NCBI GenBank assembly: GCA_002772325.1
Contig: PCSL01000095.1
Location: 363 to 10,707 of the forward strand
DNA: 10,345 nucleotides
Direction of reading: 5' to 3'
Source: Chloroflexi bacterium CG23_combo_of_CG06-09_8_20_14_all_45_10
Lineage (GTDB): Bacteria > Chloroflexota > Dehalococcoidia > GIF9 > AB-539-J10
The position numbers and the translations under genes are program-made. A model generated the notes under the pieces. It did not search any database, had not been told where the DNA came from, and was given only the letters and a program-made list of their open reading frames with translations. Shown piece by piece: positions 1-9,908 of the stretch. Numbering within the stretch: the stretch's first letter is position 1; each line of letters opens with the position of its first letter.

Positions 1-36
1 TTTAGCATCATTAATCTCTTCTGTTCTTCTCTACTC

Positions 37-45
37 AATGTCACC
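37..45. repeat. Left half of the palindromic target of IS110 element 1
   Basis: AATGTCACC lies just outside the left end of element 1. Joined to the right flank with the element removed, it reads AATGTCACCAT, a 7-base loop (CTCCTTC), then ATGGTGACATT: a perfect 11-bp inverted repeat. Element 1 therefore inserted within the 5' arm of a hairpin. The arm is also the sequence read by the left target guide. Confidence 0.75.
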
Positions 46-1544
46 TATAGAGTAAACTTAGGAATGAGGTTAAAATACTAGTGGAGAGGAATCTGGGGAG
101 AGCACTTTCAATGTCACTGTGGCCAAGACCACCGGAGATGGAACTGTGCCTCCCCAGACCTCTACGGGCAAAACGGTCAAAAGGGAGACGTGCCTTGAGC
201 ACCACTATAGGTAAATCTTGTCCCGTAGCCTCTCAAATAATAACAGGAAAGGAGGTAAGTTTCTATGAAGCGAATCTATGTCGGGATCGATTGGGCTGAT
301 GATCATCATGATATCCACGTTACCGATGATACTGCGGAGGTGCTCGACAGCTTTACTATTCCCTATAACTATGAAGGAATGGAGAAGCTAAGAGAGCGCC
401 TAGCAAAATTCTCCTCCAGCCCGGAGAATGTCTTAGTTGCCATTGAAAGCAACGAGGGGCTACTATTTTGGAATCTGCTAGAGGAAAAATACCAAGTCTA
501 TCTCATCAACCCAAAGGCAATGAGTCGCTATCCCGACAGGTATCGCATAAGTTCGAGCAAATCCGATCCTGAAGACGCCATGGTGCTAGCTAATATCTTA
601 CGCACTGACCTTCATCTCTATAAGCCTTTTTCCAAGGACTCATGGGCTGATGCCAGGCTGAAGCACCTTACACGGGCACATAAATCCTTGATACAGGAGA
701 AGGTAAAGTTAGTTAATCAACTGACTACCCAGCTAAAAAACTATTACCCAGTGGTGCTGCAGATATTCTCCCATCTTGATCAAGAGATCACTCTTGCCTT
801 TCTGCAGCAATACCCATCGCCAGAGAAAGCCAAAACTGCCTCTCTAGAAGAGCTTCAAGACTTCTTTAGAAAGGAGAAATATTCACATCCCGACAAAGTG
901 CTGTTTATCCACAAGTCTCTGCACAGGCCGTCTCTTAAAGCACCCAGGGAATTGGCTGAAATCTACGAGATGATAGTGCTCAGCCTCGTGCCTGTGCTTC
1001 ACTGCCTCTTAGGCCAAATAAAGGGGCTGGAGAAAAGGATAGCCTTGGTATTTGAGGAAAACCCAGCGCACGATATGTTCTCCAGCCTGCCTGCTGGCCC
1101 GATAATCGCCGCTCGCCTCAATGCTGAAGTCGGCAGCGCTAGCGCACGTTATCCTACTAGAGAGTCCCTGCAGACAGAAGCCGGCACAGCACCGGTGACT
1201 AAAAGGAGTGGCAAAAGCATTATAGTGTGCTTCCGCTGGCAGTGTAACAAACACCTCAGAAATGCCGTTCAGAGCTTAGCTCGGGAGAGTGTTCACAAGT
1301 GCCCCTGGGCAAGGAGGTATTTTGCCAACCAGTTGAGGTTAGGGCACAAAGCTTCAAGAGCATACCGCGCTCTCGGTAATAGGTGGACAGCTATCATCTG
1401 GAAAATGCTTCAAGAGGGGCAGTGCTTTAGTCAAGCCCGATTAGAAGACAGCCTAACTAAGGCACTACATAGCTCAATCGGGATAAATAAAGTACTTGCA
1501 ACACTTCAAAAATCTGGCTCCCGAGGGCTTGACAAAGGGAGTCC
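44..1544 (+). mobile_element. IS110-family element 1, complete, with mapped ends
   Basis: A complete IS110-type insertion sequence of about 1.5 kb, made of a structured left noncoding region, a DEDD transposase gene and a very short right end. The junctions are inferred from bridge RNA guides. Left target bases 36-43 are followed by a CC core (44-45) and the left end starts TATAG (46-50). The right end finishes AAAGGGAGT (1534-1542), followed by a CC core (1543-1544) and right target ATCTCC (1545-1550). There are no terminal inverted repeats or long target duplication, as expected for IS110. The right end falls inside the transposase reading frame. The element interrupts a palindrome reconstituted from 37-45 and 1545-1564. 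The exact dinucleotide core is an inference from what both junctions share. Confidence 0.8.
84..234 (+). ncRNA. Bridge RNA of IS110 element 1
   Basis: The left noncoding region folds into two guide loops. The first stem pairs CTGGGGAG (93-100) with CTCCCCAG (150-157) and GCAC (102-105) with GTGC (146-149), enclosing the target loop. The second stem pairs TACGGG (163-168) with CCCGTA (222-227), enclosing the donor loop. An outer GAGAGG (84-89) can pair with CCTCTC (229-234). All four guides of the IS621 model are found. Left target guide CAATGTCAC (109-117) equals the left flank (36-44). Right target guide GGAGATGG (134-141) is the reverse complement of the right flank (1543-1550). Left donor guide AAAGGGAG (180-187) equals the right end (1534-1541). 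Right donor guide CTATAGGT (205-212) is the reverse complement of the left end (43-50). The transcript ends are not known. Confidence 0.82.
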
Positions 1545-1560
1545 ATCTCCTTCATGGTGA
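265..1560 (+). CDS. IS110-family transposase (DEDD recombinase), element 1
   Basis: A bridge-RNA-dependent recombinase of 431 residues. The N-terminal RuvC-like domain carries the acidic tetrad, seen as D9 (VGIDWA), E61 (AIESNEG) and D101/D104 (KSDPEDA). A helical region follows, and then the C-terminal IS116/IS110/IS902 domain (about 272-360), where S315 in the KRSGKS context is the likely catalytic serine. An AAAGGAGGT ribosome site (248-256) sits 8 bases before the ATG. The bridge RNA lies directly upstream on the same strand. Oddly, the reading frame crosses the inferred right end at 1542, so the last five residues (PSPSW) and the stop come from target DNA. No frameshift is seen, so the element may be active. 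Family assignment is firm; the catalytic residue assignments come from family knowledge. Confidence 0.95.
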   Translation: MKRIYVGIDWADDHHDIHVTDDTAEVLDSFTIPYNYEGMEKLRERLAKFSSSPENVLVAIESNEGLLFWNLLEEKYQVYLINPKAMSRYPDRYRISSSKSDPEDAMVLANILRTDLHLYKPFSKDSWADARLKHLTRAHKSLIQEKVKLVNQLTTQLKNYYPVVLQIFSHLDQEITLAFLQQYPSPEKAKTASLEELQDFFRKEKYSHPDKVLFIHKSLHRPSLKAPRELAEIYEMIVLSLVPVLHCLLGQIKGLEKRIALVFEENPAHDMFSSLPAGPIIAARLNAEVGSASARYPTRESLQTEAGTAPVTKRSGKSIIVCFRWQCNKHLRNAVQSLARESVHKCPWARRYFANQLRLGHKASRAYRALGNRWTAIIWKMLQEGQCFSQARLEDSLTKALHSSIGINKVLATLQKSGSRGLDKGSPSPSW

Positions 1561-1609
1561 CATTTTCGCTTAACAATTAAGGGGTGACAAAATCGTAAAA
1601 CATCGACAA
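1554..1609. repeat. Right palindrome arm and 27-base direct repeats
   Basis: ATGGTGACATT (1554-1564) is the right arm of the interrupted target hairpin. It also starts the first of two direct repeats spaced 27 bases apart, at 1556 and 1583, with the pattern GGTGACA-N4-CG-N3-AACA. Repeated GGTGACATTTTCG-type units are reminiscent of the multiple terminal repeats of IS21-like elements, so this may be the scar of an older insertion sequence. That origin is an inference; only the repeats are seen. Confidence 0.5.
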
Positions 1610-1787: not shown

Positions 1788-2732
1788 ATGAAATTCAATA
1801 AATTATCTTCACTATTAGCAATGTGCCTATTGCTAATAACAACGATGTTCACGGCAGTCCCAGCTCATGCCCAAGAACCTACGCAAATAGCTGTAGAAGA
1901 AATGGTGATTACACCTGCCGGCCCTATGCTAAAATCCCACGTTTTTGAAGTTCCAAGCGGCAGCTGCATAGAAGAAACGACCAATGAGATAAGGGTTTAT
2001 GCCTCTCGCTACGATGCAGAACGGGGTGGAAACAAAATATTGGTCATACGTAAAGAACAGGGCAAGAAAGATTCTGTCCAGCCCGCAGCTCAAGGCTGGA
2101 TAGAGGATGCACGAAATTCCGCGTCAAGTATAGCAGAGGTTGGTAGGTTCCAAGCCAACTGGACCGTACCTTCTTCACCACCCAGATTTGGTGGTGCTGG
2201 TATATGTGACTTTCTTTTCCCTGGGTTGCAGCCGGATGCAGGTGGCAAAATAATTCAACCTGTGTTGCAATACGGTCATAGTGATTTTGGCGATTATGGA
2301 AAGTGGTATGGTGCATCTTGGTATGTCAGCGGGGGATACAGCATTCACAGTCCAGGGATAAGTACCGACGTTGGCCACGGCATTTATGGATACATGCAGT
2401 ACTGGTCAGGTGCCAATCCGGGATGGTCAATATATTTTCAAGATACTTGGACAGGCCAAGCAACTGACCTAGAGACATTGGAGACAACGCAGCCGTTTAG
2501 CCCGTACAACGTTGATGCCTTTATAGCATTGGAAGGCTATGGCGTAAGCGGTGATATAGATGTTCCAGGAGATACAACTTTTACAAGCATCTCATTCAAG
2601 AATGTAGCTGGCGGGTCAATAGCTGTACCTCTGGACCGATACTACTGGCCGGGGTGGAGTGGAATACTTACTGGCTTAAGAGTTGATATATTGGATAGCA
2701 ATACCAAAGTAATCCTAAACACCGCTAATTAA
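1788..2732 (+). CDS. Secreted G1 (eqolisin)-like putative glutamic peptidase, paralog 1
   Basis: An exported protein of 314 residues. A Sec signal peptide (1-28) has a clear AHA cleavage site before Q29. A short motif, EEMVITPAGPMLK (37-49), follows at the mature N terminus, then a variable linker, then a beta-rich domain (about 118-314). That domain resembles the peptidase G1/concanavalin-like fold: FQANWTVP (121-128), IIQPVLQYG (155-163), WYGASWYV (173-180), the GHGIYGYMQYW strand (196-206), WSIYFQDTWTG (213-223), ALEGYG (247-252) and DVPGDTTF (258-265). By analogy with scytalidoglutamic peptidase, Q157 and E249 would be the catalytic pair. Activity is inferred and the fold could have become a binding domain. 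The start is fixed by AAGGAGGG (1777-1784). It has a full-length paralog at 6888 and is followed by a lipoprotein gene. Confidence 0.78.
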   Translation: MKFNKLSSLLAMCLLLITTMFTAVPAHAQEPTQIAVEEMVITPAGPMLKSHVFEVPSGSCIEETTNEIRVYASRYDAERGGNKILVIRKEQGKKDSVQPAAQGWIEDARNSASSIAEVGRFQANWTVPSSPPRFGGAGICDFLFPGLQPDAGGKIIQPVLQYGHSDFGDYGKWYGASWYVSGGYSIHSPGISTDVGHGIYGYMQYWSGANPGWSIYFQDTWTGQATDLETLETTQPFSPYNVDAFIALEGYGVSGDIDVPGDTTFTSISFKNVAGGSIAVPLDRYYWPGWSGILTGLRVDILDSNTKVILNTAN

Positions 2733-3823: not shown

Positions 3824-4114
3824 GTGTGCCGAGTAAAGCGTATCCGTTCTTGTTGGTGAAAGTCCAACTTGGGCAAAGGTTAGCCACCAGCCCAACACTT
3901 AATCCCACATTCAACTGGGTAACTGGTTGGACGGTGCGGGAAGCAGGAGGTATCGAGCCATAGTGAAAGCGAACCGATTGAGCCCCGAAATCCACCATCG
4001 TGTCGGAGGCCGATACTGTTCATTAAGGAGCAGGCAGTATTCTTGTAACCGTTATTGGCGAGGTTGTAAGAGCCCGACGGGGTCTGAGAGGATGGCGAGA
4101 TACTACAAGGAGGT
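3824..4114 (+). ncRNA. Group II intron ribozyme domains I-III
   Basis: A 291-base noncoding stretch between the intron 5' end and the maturase ORF. It is rich in the small GNRA-like stems typical of domain I and ends in GACGGGGTCTGAGAGG, characteristic of the domain III/IV boundary in related bacterial introns. No large deletion is obvious. Exon-binding sites were not assigned. This stretch accounts for the lack of genes between the kinase fragment and the maturase. Confidence 0.7.
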
Positions 4115-5375
4115 ATGAACTCGGGAGAGCCAATGTATTCCCTGAGAGAATGCGGTATCAAGCCTATAGACGGTAAGATGCGGCAAGACATTATACATTG
4201 GCAGTCGGACTATCCCATAGTATCGCGGAAGTCCGTGAAAGCGGATGGAGAGAAGGGGATAGCGGTAATGCAGCGGGACGCAAGGGACACATCTGCCAGA
4301 CTCAGAACTGGGGAACAGATGACAACAAAACTTGCGTCCCTAACTCTACGAGCCAGGGGAAATCCGAAAGGTAAGTTTACATCTCTAGCTCACTTACTTA
4401 CTGAGGATTTTCTTGTGGAGTGTTTCTGGGAGCTGAAAAGGGATAAGGCTTCTGGGATAGACGGGGTAGGGGCAAGGGATTATGAGGTCAACTTAGAAGG
4501 GAACATTAAGGATTTAGTGGCAAGGTTGAAGGCAAAGAAATATAAGCCACAACCAGTAAGGCGGGTTTACATACCGAAGAGTGACGGTAGTAAGCGTGGA
4601 TTGGGAATACCCACGGTAGAGGACAAGATGGTGCAGATGGGGATAAAGAAAATCCTTGAAGCAATCTTTGAAGTTGATTTCATGGATGTATCCTTTGGAT
4701 TTCGTCCCAACAGGAGTTGCCATGATGCCTTAGATGTGCTGGACAAGGCAATCATGACCAAGCCAGTCAACTATGTAGTTGATATGGATATTGAGAAATT
4801 CTTTGATAAAGCAAAGACTCAGTAAGTTTGGGTTAAGGATTGCCGAGAGCAAAACAAGGATAATGGAGTTTGGTCATTATGTTTGGGAGAAGGCACAGAA
4901 ACGAGGCAAGAGAGGTGCGACCTTTGATTTTCTGGGATTTACACATTATTGCGATAAAACCAGAAAAGGCAAATTTAAGTTAGGGCGGAAGACGAGTGCC
5001 AAGAAGTTCAGGCAAAAGCTGGAGGAGATGAACCTTTGGTTGAAGAAGGTTCGAAACCTTGTAGGGTTAGAAGAGTGGTGGAAGGTGTTAAGGCTAAAGT
5101 TGCTAGGACACTACCGCTACTATGGAATAAGTGGCAATATAGAGGCACTGAGGAAATTCTATAGACAGACTTCAAAGCTTGCCTACAAATGGATGAATAG
5201 ACGAAGTCAGCGAAAGAGTTTCACCTATGCCCAATATTGTAAGTTTAAGGAATATAACCCTTTGCCTGAGCCGAAGATATATCACTTAACCTATACTCTG
5301 TCATCGTATCGAGGAAGTATTACCGAAGAGCCGAATCTGGGAAATCTGGATGTTCGGTTCTGTGAGGGGCATTAA
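4115..5375 (+). pseudogene. Group II intron reverse transcriptase/maturase, core deleted and frameshifted
   Basis: Two out-of-frame pieces of one intron-encoded protein. Piece 1 (4115-4825) carries the finger motifs: KDKASGIDGV-like RDKASGIDGV (109-118), VYIPKSDGSKRGLGIPT (151-167), the DVSFGFRPNRSCHDAL region (191-206) and DMDIEKFFD (223-231), which holds the first catalytic Asp. It then breaks off. Piece 2 resumes at about 4815 in another frame with RLSKFGLRIAESKTRI, the post-YADD region, followed by the thumb/domain X maturase part (about 4980-5290). The YADD box and neighbouring motifs are absent. Compared with LtrA, roughly 100 residues are missing at about 4810-4818. No HNH endonuclease domain follows, and the last codons run through ribozyme domain V. 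The native start may be the ATG at 4115 or one further in (4268). It should have no reverse transcriptase activity. Confidence 0.9.
5328..5360 (+). ncRNA. Group II intron domain V
   Basis: A 33-base hairpin with lower stem GAGCCGAA (5328-5335) pairing TTCGGTTC (5353-5360), a two-base TG bulge, and an upper stem capped by a GAAA-type loop. It is followed by TGTGAGGGG, the usual sequence after domain V in bacterial introns. It carries the catalytic AGC. It overlaps the end of the maturase ORF, giving the typical EEP...VRFCEG tail. Confidence 0.85.
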
Positions 5376-5414
5376 ATAACTACGGAAGGAGGTTATAAAA
5401 GATGTCTACTCGAC
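5364..5414 (+). ncRNA. Group II intron domain VI and 3' splice site
   Basis: GGCAT (5368-5372) can pair with ATGTC (5402-5406) and ATAAC (5376-5380) with GTTAT (5392-5396), with unpaired A residues (5397-5400) as branch-point candidates. It ends TACTCGAC (5407-5414), with the AY terminus expected of these introns. Unusually, the loop contains AAGGAGG (5386-5392) and the 3' strand contains an ATG (5402) in frame with the downstream transposase. Confidence 0.65.
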
Positions 5415-6625
5415 TTAAGTATCATGTAGGAGTAGATGTTAGCAAAGATAAGCACAAGGTTTGTATCCGCAATCTTTCCCAGGACTCTTATTCAGGAGTA
5501 TCCTCTATCAGTGTCAATCGCCAAGGATTCGAGAAATTCTTGAGCACTCTGGAAAAGCTTTCCCAAAACAAGGAAGACTTTATTATCGGCATTGAGGCAA
5601 CGGGGAATTATGGGATTACTTTGGCTTACTTCCTTCTGGCTCAAGGCTACAAGGTGGTGGAGATTAATCCCTACAGAGCAAGTCAATTCCGCAAGGCTCA
5701 AGGAAAGAAAGCTAAAAGCGACCGCATTGACGCTCGTTCCCTGGCAACCCTTCTCTCCTTGGAAAACCATAAATCTCTTTCCCTTCCTGATCCTGTGCTC
5801 GATAACCTCAGGGAACTCACCCGCTTCCGTGCCGATATGGTGAAGGACCGCACTAGCCTGGTGAATCAGCTCCGCGAAGCTCTTTCTACTCTTTTCCCCG
5901 AACTAGCCGCCATTTTTAGCCAGCTTGATTCCCCCACTTGCCTGTCTTTGCTTATAGCTTATCCTGGTCCAGGATATATTTCTCGTGCCGGGGAGACAAA
6001 GGTAGCTGAAAGTTTGAGGATTGCCAGCCGAGGCAGGATAGGAGAGGCTTTAGCTAAAACCCTTGTGGAAATAGCCCAAGATAGTGTGGGAGTGGTTCAG
6101 AGGCAATCAGCTTTGGCACTCAGAGTATCCATCCTGGGCGAAAGAATCGTGGCTCTGGCAGGAGCTATTGAAAAGGTGGAAAAGGAGATAGCCGACCTTT
6201 TCCACAAGTTGCCCTATAAGCCTGAGGATTTTCCTGTAGGGAATATCACTTCTCTGGCTGCTCTTATCTCTGAAATTGAGGATATCAATCACTTTCCTAC
6301 TCTCAAGCAATTCCTGTCCCACTTTGGCTGGTGTCCTCAGAGCCTCCAAAGTGGTAGCTATAGGCTGGAGCATCCCAGAATGAGTCATGCCGGCAATAAG
6401 TATGTAAGAAGACTTATCTGGATGCTCTCAATAGTTGCTGTGAGAACCATACCCAGGTACCGAACTTACTTTGAGCGACGAGTTGCCAAAGGTAAATCTA
6501 AGATGCATATTCTTGTAGCCGTAGGGCGTAAACTCCTTTCCGTATTCTATGCTATTTTGAAAAAGGGAGTGCCCTATAATCCTAATTGGGAGGTAAACCA
6601 CCATTTTGCCCTGGCAAGGAGTTGA
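5402..6625 (+). CDS. IS110-family transposase, element 2 (3' exon plus intron-supplied start)
   Basis: A DEDD recombinase of 407 residues as read from the unspliced DNA. The acidic tetrad is D12 (VGVDVSK), E65 (GIEATGNYG), D107 and D110 (KSDRIDARSLA). The C-terminal IS116/IS110/IS902 domain carries the likely catalytic S317 (SLQSGSY). Family homology starts at about K6; the first residues, MSTR, are encoded by intron domain VI, which also supplies the AAGGAGG site (5386-5392). The native start is probably the ATG at 3820-3822 with AAGGTGA (3810-3816). Joining 3823 to 5415 gives M-I-K-Y-H-V-G. Both spliced and unspliced transcripts could therefore yield a near-identical enzyme. No frameshift is seen in the body. 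No bridge RNA was found beside it, so it may act only on other copies, or not at all. Confidence 0.93.
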   Translation: MSTRLKYHVGVDVSKDKHKVCIRNLSQDSYSGVSSISVNRQGFEKFLSTLEKLSQNKEDFIIGIEATGNYGITLAYFLLAQGYKVVEINPYRASQFRKAQGKKAKSDRIDARSLATLLSLENHKSLSLPDPVLDNLRELTRFRADMVKDRTSLVNQLREALSTLFPELAAIFSQLDSPTCLSLLIAYPGPGYISRAGETKVAESLRIASRGRIGEALAKTLVEIAQDSVGVVQRQSALALRVSILGERIVALAGAIEKVEKEIADLFHKLPYKPEDFPVGNITSLAALISEIEDINHFPTLKQFLSHFGWCPQSLQSGSYRLEHPRMSHAGNKYVRRLIWMLSIVAVRTIPRYRTYFERRVAKGKSKMHILVAVGRKLLSVFYAILKKGVPYNPNWEVNHHFALARS

Positions 6626-6887: not shown

Positions 6888-7841
6888 ATGATGAAAGCAT
6901 CAAACAAGCTACGTTCAATCTTACTTGTGATTTGTTTGGTTCTCACTACCATGACCTACATGACTCTTCCTGCATCTGCTCAGGAATCGCAATTACAACA
7001 GAGCAACGAAGAAATCGTCTATACACCGGTCGGCCCAATGTTAAAATCACATGTTCATAAGGTTCCAAATGGTTCTTACGTTTTAAAGACCGCTGATGAG
7101 CTCAAAGTATACGCTTCACGCTCTGACGCCGATAAGGGTAGTGAATGCATATTGACCATACCCTTGGAGAGACGATGTCCATCGCTACCTCCGCAACCTC
7201 CAGCCGGTGGATGGATTGAATGGGCTCATAATAAGTACAGTGTCTCAAATATCGGCAGATTTGAGGCTTACTGGACCGTACCCTCGTCACCCCCGAGATT
7301 TGGCGGGTATGGTGTACTATCATATATATTCAATTCACTAAGTGAACCCGGTGAAATAATCCAGCCTGTTCTTCAATATGGCGAGGGGTGTTTTGGTAGC
7401 AATGGTAACTGGTACGGTGCATCATGGTACGTATGGGGAGGTACATGTGGACAAGCAATTTACAGTGAGCCCATAGATACCGCAGTGGGACACCACATCT
7501 ATGGGTACATGCAGTATTGGGCAGGAAATAATCCAGGATGGTCAATATTCTTTCAGGACCGCACTGCTAACATGGCAACCGCTTTGGAAGTAGGAACTGT
7601 GTTAGATCCAGATAACGTTACCCCAGATATCGCTCTTGAAGGGTATGGCATTAGTGGTGATATAGACGTCCCAGGGGATACCACCTTCACTGGCATTAGC
7701 TTCAAGAATACCAGTGGTAACTCAATCTCAGTGGAACTAGAAGGGGTGGTCGACCATGCCAAATGGGACGGAATACTCACGGGGTTAGGCGTAGACGTAC
7801 TGTATAATAGTACAAGAGTGGTTCTAAATACTGTAAATTGA
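6888..7841 (+). CDS. Secreted G1 (eqolisin)-like putative glutamic peptidase, paralog 2
   Basis: An exported protein of 317 residues and full-length paralog of the protein at 1788. The signal peptide ends ASA (29-31) before Q32. The N-terminal motif NEEIVYTPVGPMLK is at 40-53. In the C-terminal domain, WTVPSSPPRFGG, IIQPVLQYG (157-165), WYGASWYV, HIYGYMQYW, NPGWSI, IALEGYG (248-254) and GDIDVPGDTTFT are shared with paralog 1. The candidate catalytic pair Q159/E251 has the same 92-residue spacing as Q157/E249 there. Two extra cysteines around 168 and 187 could form a disulfide. Start: GAGGAGGT (6875-6882) serves either of two adjacent ATGs (6888, 6891). Glutamic peptidase activity is inferred from fold-level similarity only. 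Third-position divergence between the paralogs suggests an old duplication. Confidence 0.78.
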   Translation: MMKASNKLRSILLVICLVLTTMTYMTLPASAQESQLQQSNEEIVYTPVGPMLKSHVHKVPNGSYVLKTADELKVYASRSDADKGSECILTIPLERRCPSLPPQPPAGGWIEWAHNKYSVSNIGRFEAYWTVPSSPPRFGGYGVLSYIFNSLSEPGEIIQPVLQYGEGCFGSNGNWYGASWYVWGGTCGQAIYSEPIDTAVGHHIYGYMQYWAGNNPGWSIFFQDRTANMATALEVGTVLDPDNVTPDIALEGYGISGDIDVPGDTTFTGISFKNTSGNSISVELEGVVDHAKWDGILTGLGVDVLYNSTRVVLNTVN

Positions 7842-8669: not shown

Positions 8670-9908
8670 TCATGCTGCCACCAGAATGGGTTCTAGAGAA
8701 ACACAATATCCCAATGACTGTAGTTTTTTGACCAAGCTTGTTTCTAGGGCTTTGCGGTGGAGCTTATCAAAGTAGTCTGACCCCAAATCGAGATAAGAAC
8801 GACCTTGCTTTAATACATGATAAACTATGACCAATATCTTATGTCCCAGAGCCATTATAGCTCGCTTTTTACCGCGGCGAGCTGCTATCCTATGGTACCT
8901 CGCCGAGAGATAGGTATTCTTTGTCCTTGAAGCTCCCCAAGCTGCCTCGCATAAGGTACACCTTAATGAACTGTCTCCTTTGGTCGTCCGTCCGCTCTTC
9001 CTCTTCCCAGCACTTTCATTATTGCCCGGACTCATACCCGCCCAAGAGGAAAGATGAGCATCGGTAGGGAAACGAGACATGTCAGTCCCTATCTCGGCTA
9101 TCAAGGAGGCGGCGGTCTGCTCCTTTACGCCAGGAATGGTTTGAAGCAGCTCGCATTCCTCTCCATAGGGCTCAAGACAAGCATCGATTCTTTGCTCCAG
9201 TTCTTCAATGGGCTCTTCAAGGAACTCAAGATGTCTAAGGCTTTTCTCCAGAAGGTATCTATGATGGTCAGAAAGGCAGCCATTAAGTGATTCCACGAGC
9301 TCAGGAATTTTGCCTCGCAGTTTTCCTTTGGCGAGCTGAGCCATCTCCTCAGGGCTTTGCTCACCCTGGGTTAAGGCTTGGAGAATTTCCCTCCCTGAGG
9401 CTCCAAAGACATTGCTAGCCACAGAGGAAAACTTAATATTGGCATCTTCAAGGATCTTTTGTACTCTATTTCTCTCGGCCGTTGCTGCACTAACCAGCTT
9501 TTTGCGATACCTAGTAAGATCACGAAGCTCTCGAATAGGCTTGGGGGGGATAAAGCTTTCTTCGATCAGGCCACAGCGTAGAAGCTTAGCAATCCACTCA
9601 CAATCCTTAACATCTGTCTTTCGCCCCGGGAGATTCTTTATGTGCCTGGCATTAGCCAGAATGACCTTTACCGAGCTTTCCAGGATGTTGAACACCGGCT
9701 TCCAGTAAACTCCAGTGCTCTCCACAGCAACATGGGTACATCCCTCTGCCTCTAGCCAATCCCTGAGCTTGAGAAGGTCATTGGTCATGGTGGAAAAGGT
9801 CTTGATGGTTTTCTTTACCTCTCCATTTAGCTCGCCAACGAGAAGGCAGGCCACTACTTTGGATTTGTGGACATCGATTCCGCAGCATCTTTCTAGATTG
9901 TCTTCCAT
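8670..9908 (-). CDS. IS110-family transposase, element 3
   Basis: A DEDD recombinase of 412 residues, intact. The acidic tetrad is D12 (CGIDVHKS), E63 (AVESTGVYWKP), D99 and D102 (GRKTDVKDCEW). A helical middle follows, then the C-terminal IS116/IS110/IS902 domain starting around LLQTIPGVKEQTAASLIAEIG (254-274), with the SWAGMSPGNNESAGKRKSG region (288-306) and S299 as likely catalytic serine. The ribosome site AAGGAGG lies just upstream (complement of 9913-9919). It is clearly different from transposases 1 and 2, so three separate IS110 lineages are present in 10 kb. The full-length ORF and structured upstream region suggest it may be active. Confidence 0.95.
   Translation of the reverse strand: MEDNLERCCGIDVHKSKVVACLLVGELNGEVKKTIKTFSTMTNDLLKLRDWLEAEGCTHVAVESTGVYWKPVFNILESSVKVILANARHIKNLPGRKTDVKDCEWIAKLLRCGLIEESFIPPKPIRELRDLTRYRKKLVSAATAERNRVQKILEDANIKFSSVASNVFGASGREILQALTQGEQSPEEMAQLAKGKLRGKIPELVESLNGCLSDHHRYLLEKSLRHLEFLEEPIEELEQRIDACLEPYGEECELLQTIPGVKEQTAASLIAEIGTDMSRFPTDAHLSSWAGMSPGNNESAGKRKSGRTTKGDSSLRCTLCEAAWGASRTKNTYLSARYHRIAARRGKKRAIMALGHKILVIVYHVLKQGRSYLDLGSDYFDKLHRKALETSLVKKLQSLGYCVSLEPILVAA

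What the first reader, a model, noticed from the sequence alone, without database searches (positions are those of the whole stretch)
36..1550. Full four-guide bridge RNA assignment for an undescribed IS110 element
Both loops of the left-end RNA carry segments matching exactly what the IS621 bridge RNA model predicts. A 9-base left target guide (109-117) equals 36-44. An 8-base right target guide (134-141) is complementary to 1543-1550. An 8-base left donor guide (180-187) equals 1534-1541. An 8-base right donor guide (205-212) is complementary to 43-50. All four have the correct sense and order and converge on a shared CC at both junctions. The matches are seen in the sequence; the model is established; the CC core is inferred. 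In the left target guide the second core position would be a U-G wobble.
Basis: partly seen in the sequence, partly recalled or inferred. Interest (0 to 1): 0.9.

Follow-up and report, generated by a model that had tools for sequence, protein, structure and literature searches.

The report
IS110 jumping gene with bridge RNA
This is a bacterial jumping gene of the IS110 family whose short RNA appears to steer it to one exact spot at the start of a rival jumping gene's enzyme gene; comparison with relatives and with uninterrupted copies of that spot supports the predicted guides, so it is a well-supported new example of a recently discovered mechanism rather than a new mechanism.

Summary
Window 44-1544 is an IS110-group element in a MAG of class Dehalococcoidia. 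It has a DEDD/serine recombinase (265-1560) and a left-end RNA with two looped stems, and sits between codons 4 and 5 of an ISNCY-type transposase gene. Relatives with other flanks carry other, matching guides: own flanks fit better than foreign ones in 13 elements (0 of 50,000 permutations) and in the 7 whose ends were set without guides. The circle junction would rebuild a TTGACA-17-TAAACT promoter. Corrections: the right donor guide is 7 bases, not 8 (base 43 is target); the left donor guide mismatches beside the core. The notable feature is the CC core: IS621 relatives are said to have a near-invariant T at its second position, yet here and in L069 (36% protein identity) it is CC, and RTG and RDG read CC too. 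Nothing was tested at the bench.

The parts
1..43 (-). left target flank: codons 5 onward of the interrupted ISNCY-type transposase gene (reads on the - strand; only about 14 codons before the scaffold gap)
   Evidence: alignment with uninterrupted copies; (L101 ORF = ISNCY family transposase, NF033594)
36..43 (+). left target (LT), followed by the core
44..45 (.). left core dinucleotide CC
   Evidence: single copy in empty sites; homologous position is CT in more distant relatives
44..50 (+). right donor (RD) including core, CCTATAG
53..58 (+). -10-like TAAACT, 17 bases from TTGACA across the circle junction
   Evidence: junction strings
65..235 (+). bridge RNA (ends inferred, not mapped)
   Evidence: 80-262 folds with z -3.05; three-sequence consensus fold
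93..157 (+). target-binding stem-loop: outer arms 93-100/150-157, inner stem 119-122/129-132
109..118 (+). left target guide CAATGTCA + CU opposite the CC core (U-G wobble at second core base)
134..141 (+). right target guide GGAGATGG, pairs with CCATCTCC
162..228 (+). donor-binding stem-loop: outer arms 162-168/222-228, inner stem 190-193/199-202
   Evidence: outer arms; inner stem
180..189 (+). left donor guide AAAGGGAG(A)C, mismatch at 188
205..211 (+). right donor guide CTATAGG
265..1560 (+). IS110-family recombinase, 431 aa; D9, E61, D101, D104 and S315-G316 invariant; reads through the right end into the target
1529..1534 (+). -35-like TTGACA in the right end
1534..1542 (+). left donor (LD)
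1543..1544 (.). right core dinucleotide CC
1545..1550 (+). right target (RT), after the core
1545..1603 (-). right target flank: first four codons and terminal region of the ISNCY-type element (outer limit approximate)

Best explanation
Window 44-1544 is an IS110-group insertion sequence. It excises as a circle that joins its right and left ends, which rebuilds a promoter (TTGACA-17-TAAACT) and transcribes the left-end bridge RNA. The first RNA loop pairs with CAATGTCA-CC-ATCTCC at the start of an ISNCY-type transposase gene (LTG with the bottom strand, RTG with the top). The second loop pairs with the element's own joined ends AGGGAGT-CC-TATAG. The DEDD/serine recombinase then exchanges strands at the shared CC, inserting the element without target duplication and interrupting the host IS's transposase gene between codons 4 and 5. 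Shown in sequence: boundaries, empty site, guide-flank matches and their covariation in relatives, catalytic residues, junction promoter motif. Inferred from IS621: RNA expression, pairing in the cell, the circle and the catalytic steps.
For: Exact matches; 0 of 5000 shuffles with a comparable set. Empty target: exact 16-mer in 9 of 30 loci, at most one mismatch in 18 of 30, same spacing as the joined flanks. Closest relatives: L014 flank AACAAACCC with LTG AACAAACCC; L015 flank ACCCTCACC with LTG ACCCTCACC; L015 right end AAAGGAAG with LDG AAAGGAAG. Own versus foreign flank matches over 13 elements (12 for RT and LD): LT 7.38 vs 5.75 of 8, RT 6.42 vs 5.32 of 7, LD 6.75 vs 5.52 of 7, RD 7.00 vs 5.63 of 7; 0 of 50,000 permutations each. 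With only the seven elements whose ends were set without guides: LT 13 of 5040, RT 1 of 720, LD 2 of 720, RD 24 of 5040 permutations as good. Multi-copy relatives fix ends by where copies stop being identical. Profile of 14 relatives hits IS621 (8.5e-19) and ISCro4 (4.1e-19). Junction promoter.
Against: LDG mismatches at 188/1542 and the LTG gives only a wobble at the second core base. For six of the 13 elements (L016, L019, L024, L030, L035, L069) the left boundary was picked with the help of guide matches, so their part is partly circular. In one search, 11 of 17 scanned elements did not beat their shuffles (three ties), and window ORF 3 did with an implausible AA core. In one search the four best matches were in the expected order in 7 of 12 elements with both ends; not in L015, L019 (wrong right end there, corrected), L030, L035 and L027. 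L015 has TC, not CC, at the right end. The three-sequence RNA fold has an unfavourable covariation term (+0.56) despite three compensatory pairs, and no IS621-like 5' stem-loop was seen. No expression or activity data.
Confidence: 0.93

Rival explanations
1. The matches are chance or the reader's choice among many short matches; the element is an IS110 insertion but its RNA guides are elsewhere or absent.
For: Each 8-base match alone is not rare: 13 to 42 of 2000 shuffles. The free-boundary scan leaves a tied register shifted to TC.
Against: 0 of 5000 shuffles give the ordered set; covariation with flanks in relatives; exact empty sites.
Confidence: 0.02
2. The element is a real bridge RNA element but now dead or decaying: the recombinase has lost its stop codon and reads through the right end, so the copy is a relic.
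For: ORF is 431 aa and ends at 1560 in the target, while most of the 120 listed homologues are about 404 aa or shorter. It is the only copy found in its own 73%-complete genome.
Against: Catalytic residues, both ends, four guides and junction promoter motif are intact; the extra residues are at the C terminus.
Confidence: 0.3
3. The core is not CC but a neighbouring dinucleotide, and the apparent CC core is an alignment accident.
For: TC register at 41/1542 ties; L015 right end reads TC.
Against: CC is the only sequence shared by both junctions and single in empty sites; end alignment with multi-copy CT-core relatives places CC at the core; RDG pairs with the whole core in 13 of 13 elements, CC in four and CT in nine (six of these left ends were guide-informed).
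Confidence: 0.04

Closest known systems
IS621 (IS110 group; PMC11208160: outline, abstract, sections 6 and 12 and passages seen; PMC11208158: passages seen)
   Same: DEDD plus serine recombinase; RNA in the left end; two internal loops with LTG, RTG, LDG, RDG in the same order and strand sense; core included in pairing; promoter rebuilt across the circle junction; LD position 7 described there as appearing more mismatch tolerant, the position that mismatches here
   Different: Core CC instead of CT, where the second T is described as almost invariant; 8-base RTG instead of 4; contiguous 7-base RDG instead of a discontiguous one; recombinase 431 aa instead of 326; target is the start of an ISNCY-type transposase gene rather than a REP element (REP target recalled)
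ISCro4 (PDB 9t56)
   Same: Recombinase related by sequence profile
   Different: Not compared further; no target or RNA data read
ISEc21 and the IS1111/IS110 seekRNA elements (PMC11187229, passages seen)
   Same: RNA from the non-coding end selects the target; in IS110 and some relatives the longer non-coding region is upstream of tnp, as here
   Different: Targets differ; the IS1111 type has subterminal inverted repeats and its longer non-coding region at the other end
Distant relatives found here (L016, L024, L070, L095, L072)
   Same: Like end motifs and guide order; 17-base junction spacing in L016, L024 and L070
   Different: 37-42% protein identity, CT core, different targets

Membership tests
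IS110 family (IS110 group) | Recombinase with RuvC-like DEDD domain and Tnp (Transposase_20) domain | tested here: met
   PF01548 7e-35, PF02371 4.2e-9; NF033542 150.9 bits, cut-off 140; D9, E61, D101, D104, S315, G316 invariant in 14 sequences
IS110 family (IS110 group) | Long non-coding left end, short right end | tested here: met
   219 bases from after the core to the start codon; ORF reaches through the right end
IS110 family (IS110 group) | No target duplication beyond the shared core | tested here: met
   Empty sites have a single CC and the same spacing
Bridge RNA elements | Two loops with LTG, RTG, LDG, RDG matching target and donor | tested here: met
Bridge RNA elements | Guides covary with target and donor among relatives | tested here: met
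[quoted passage not shown]
   TTGACA-17-TAAACT in silico; activity not tested
IS621-like subgroup | CT core with near-invariant T at position 2 | tested here: not met
   Core is CC
IS621-like subgroup | 5' stem-loop before the two looped stems | tested here: inconclusive
   Not seen in the single-sequence or three-sequence fold, which started at window position 80
IS1111 group | RNA in the right end | tested here: not met
   RNA and guides are in the left end and the right end is covered by the ORF
IS1111 group | Subterminal inverted repeats of 7-17 bp | not tested
   No search for them was run
Bridge RNA elements | RNA expressed and bound by the recombinase, RNA-directed recombination | not testable with these tools
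   Needs experiment

The most novel reading that the evidence does not exclude
There is a natural lineage of IS110 bridge recombinases with a CC core. The T at the second core position, described as almost invariant in IS621 relatives, has been replaced, and the RTG and RDG have changed with it, while the LTG in two of four such elements (window and L069) carries U, as a CT-core guide would, and pairs by wobble. Such enzymes would recognise the core differently from IS621 and open target sites that IS621 does not use well.
Probability: 0.7. Interest if true: 0.5.

Novelty: new member of a known kind. Interest (0 to 1): 0.4.

Why it matters
It is a fully readable, internally cross-checked case of RNA-guided insertion in a Dehalococcoidia metagenome-assembled genome, with a predicted empty site found exactly in related genomes. 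It shows one mobile element apparently aiming its RNA at the start of another's transposase gene. The CC core with co-changed guides makes the published explanation for the near-invariant T at core position 2 directly testable, and could widen the set of usable cores for bridge recombinases.

Tried and rejected
Idea that the residue after the catalytic Glu sets the second core base (Thr in CT-core relatives, not Thr in CC-core ones): rejected, because L076 and L089 have ERPD like the CC-core L069 but a right end that reads CT. That pattern search found the loop in only part of the loci it was given, and missed the window's own.

First scan of relatives let the RNA include the flank, so the LTG matched the LT itself; discarded and redone. 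In one search, 6 of 17 elements beat their 8 shuffles (window element, L016, L019, L024, L030 and window ORF 3 with an AA core, judged spurious), three tied (window ORF 2, L027, L035) and eight fell below. The 13 elements are those for which I could place at least the left end; other scanned relatives were left out. The right boundary of L019 used was wrong; corrected. L015's RNA holds an insertion, so its LD position is out of order.

I first took the target for an IS21-family end; the neighbouring ORF in L101 is an ISNCY family transposase (NF033594, 226.8 bits against a cut-off of 250, from a 241-aa piece). Two other loci looked at first (L102, L113) showed no such ORF of 120 aa or more beside the site; a wider check found matches to that protein in 20 of 30 loci, 10 of them over 100 aa or more.

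Searches that gave nothing: viral contigs; PDB with the single protein (no IS110 enzyme). No further close copies in 52 genomes of the family (DNA), 84 of the order (protein) or 15 of the order of G216, apart from those known. Rfam has no match on the element up to E 1. No structure prediction was run.

Full report
OBSERVATION. Singly the 8-base matches are not rare (RTG 25, LDG 42, RDG 13 of 2000 shuffles; the 9-base LTG 1 of 2000), but the ordered exact set with freely chosen boundaries was not found in 5000 dinucleotide shuffles of 80-262 and was found once in the real sequence (match lengths were set after seeing the data). A scan that was not told the ends returned left core 44 and right core 1543 as joint best, with a register shifted to TC in a tie.

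THE ELEMENT. ORF 265-1560 is an IS110-family recombinase. Its DEDD residues and the Ser-Gly pair are invariant among 14 sequences, and a profile of these finds IS621 and ISCro4 in the PDB; the single sequence did not. The left end folds better than shuffles (z -3.05). A three-sequence consensus with L014 and L023 gives two stems, each with an internal loop and an apical stem, and three compensatory pairs, though its covariation term is slightly unfavourable (+0.56) and L023 lacks the native left end. The guides lie on the 5' and 3' sides of these two loops.

BOUNDARIES AND TARGET. The window's genome (G000) holds a paralogous uninterrupted site (L002) with the same left half and the same spacing as the joined flanks but three mismatches in the 16-mer. 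A search of 84 genomes of the order found this sequence in 32 of them. Of the 30 loci fetched (L098-L127, one per genome), 9 contain the exact joined 16-mer CAATGTCACCATCTCC, 18 are within one mismatch, and 5 have no hit within three mismatches. The ORF beside it in L101 starts MKERVTLNKKEQ and matches the ISNCY family transposase model; matches to that protein are present in 20 of the 30 loci, over 100 aa or more in 10. The window's flanks read MKEM|VTLSREEQ in that frame (translated by hand from the string), so the element sits between codons 4 and 5, in the opposite orientation. Only about 14 codons remain on the window side before a scaffold gap, so whether the rest of that gene is intact is unknown.

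COVARIATION. The nearest relatives found outside the genome are degraded copies in Dehalococcoidia UBA2777 (G061 and G216 give the same matches and G216 is in the window's class). L014 has flank AACAAACCC and LTG AACAAACCC; L015 has flank ACCCTCACC and LTG ACCCTCACC. L014's RTG predicts CCTCATGA; a deleted sister copy on contig C15 with the same left target, whose own RNA is gone, is followed by CCTCATGG, 7 of 8. L015's right end and LDG both read AAAGGAAG where the window has AAAGGGAG. Over 13 elements (12 for RT and LD) each RNA matches its own flanks better than those of others on average, 0 of 50,000 permutations as good for each of the four guides. Six of these left ends were placed with the help of guides; with the other seven alone, permutations as good are LT 13 of 5040, RT 1 of 720, LD 2 of 720 and RD 24 of 5040. 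Relatedness is not corrected for. In one search the four best matches stand in the expected order in 7 of 12 elements. In multi-copy relatives the ends were fixed by where identity between copies stops (G675, G711, G748); there the RTG matches the right target 7 of 7 in the one copy used of each, while the LT matches only 6 of 8.

DETAILS THAT AGREE WITH IS621. The right end has TTGACA and the left end TAAACT, 17 bases apart when joined; the same spacing holds in the six relatives tested, with TTGACA and TAAACT or TAAGGT. IS621 is reported to rebuild a promoter in this way (PMC11208158, passages). The LDG mismatch at 188/1542 falls on LD position 7, which PMC11208160 describes as appearing more mismatch tolerant (passages); L014 and L015 share the A in the LDG.

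CORE. Of 13 elements with a placed left end, four have CC (window, L014, L015, L069) and nine CT; the RDG pairs with the whole core in all 13. The right core is CC in the window, in L069 and in the C15 copy, but TC in L015. PMC11208158 states that the second T is almost invariant and contacted by the backbone of G63 (passages). The LTG carries U opposite the second C in the window and in L069, and C in L014 and L015. A simple protein correlate was tested and failed.

COMPARISON AND NOVELTY. It works like, and by the sequence features tested belongs to, the IS110 group of bridge RNA elements; it differs from IS621 in its CC core, longer RTG and contiguous RDG. Elements of this family aiming at other mobile elements are known (IS4321/IS5075 on Tn21-type ends; recalled, seen only in a search listing). 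Besides the window's own protein, 119 homologues at 51-71% identity are listed, the best of 930 hits, with sources jgi, lgn, ena and, for five, ncbi, so the protein lineage is not rare. Whether this element is catalogued in ISfinder was not checked. Four searches of the papers library (listings capped) showed no paper whose title or abstract start names this element or a CC-core IS110; only the three papers cited here were opened, and none in full.

Noticed in passing
window 3859-5414 and 5402-6625 (+): A group II intron (RF02005 3859-4092, RF00029 5326-5414) with a reverse transcriptase ORF in two pieces ends right at the start of a second IS110-family ORF; the intron's last bases would supply that ORF's ribosome site and start codon.
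   Followed up: partly
window 8670-9908 (-): A third, different IS110-family recombinase, with a weak match to the TIGR-Tas endonuclease model (1.7e-7, below cut-off). Three IS110-type genes lie within 10 kb.
   Followed up: no
window 1788-2732 and 6888-7841 (+): Two similar-looking predicted secreted proteins of 314 and 317 aa with no Pfam or NCBIfam match, each followed by a smaller ORF.
   Followed up: no
L023 2315-2400: The flank is joined directly to the bridge RNA at the left target guide, so the left end is missing; the deletion would run between the target and its copy in the guide.
   Followed up: partly
L015 about 2270-2410: The bridge RNA gene of this copy is itself interrupted by an insertion (with a run of N) whose end resembles the right flank of the C15 copy.
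   Followed up: no
L051 (G061 contig C15): Deleted IS110 copy: left end fused to about codon 287, both CC cores kept.
   Followed up: partly
window 1477-1560: The recombinase ORF lacks the stop found near residue 404 in many close homologues and reads through the right end into target DNA.
   Followed up: no
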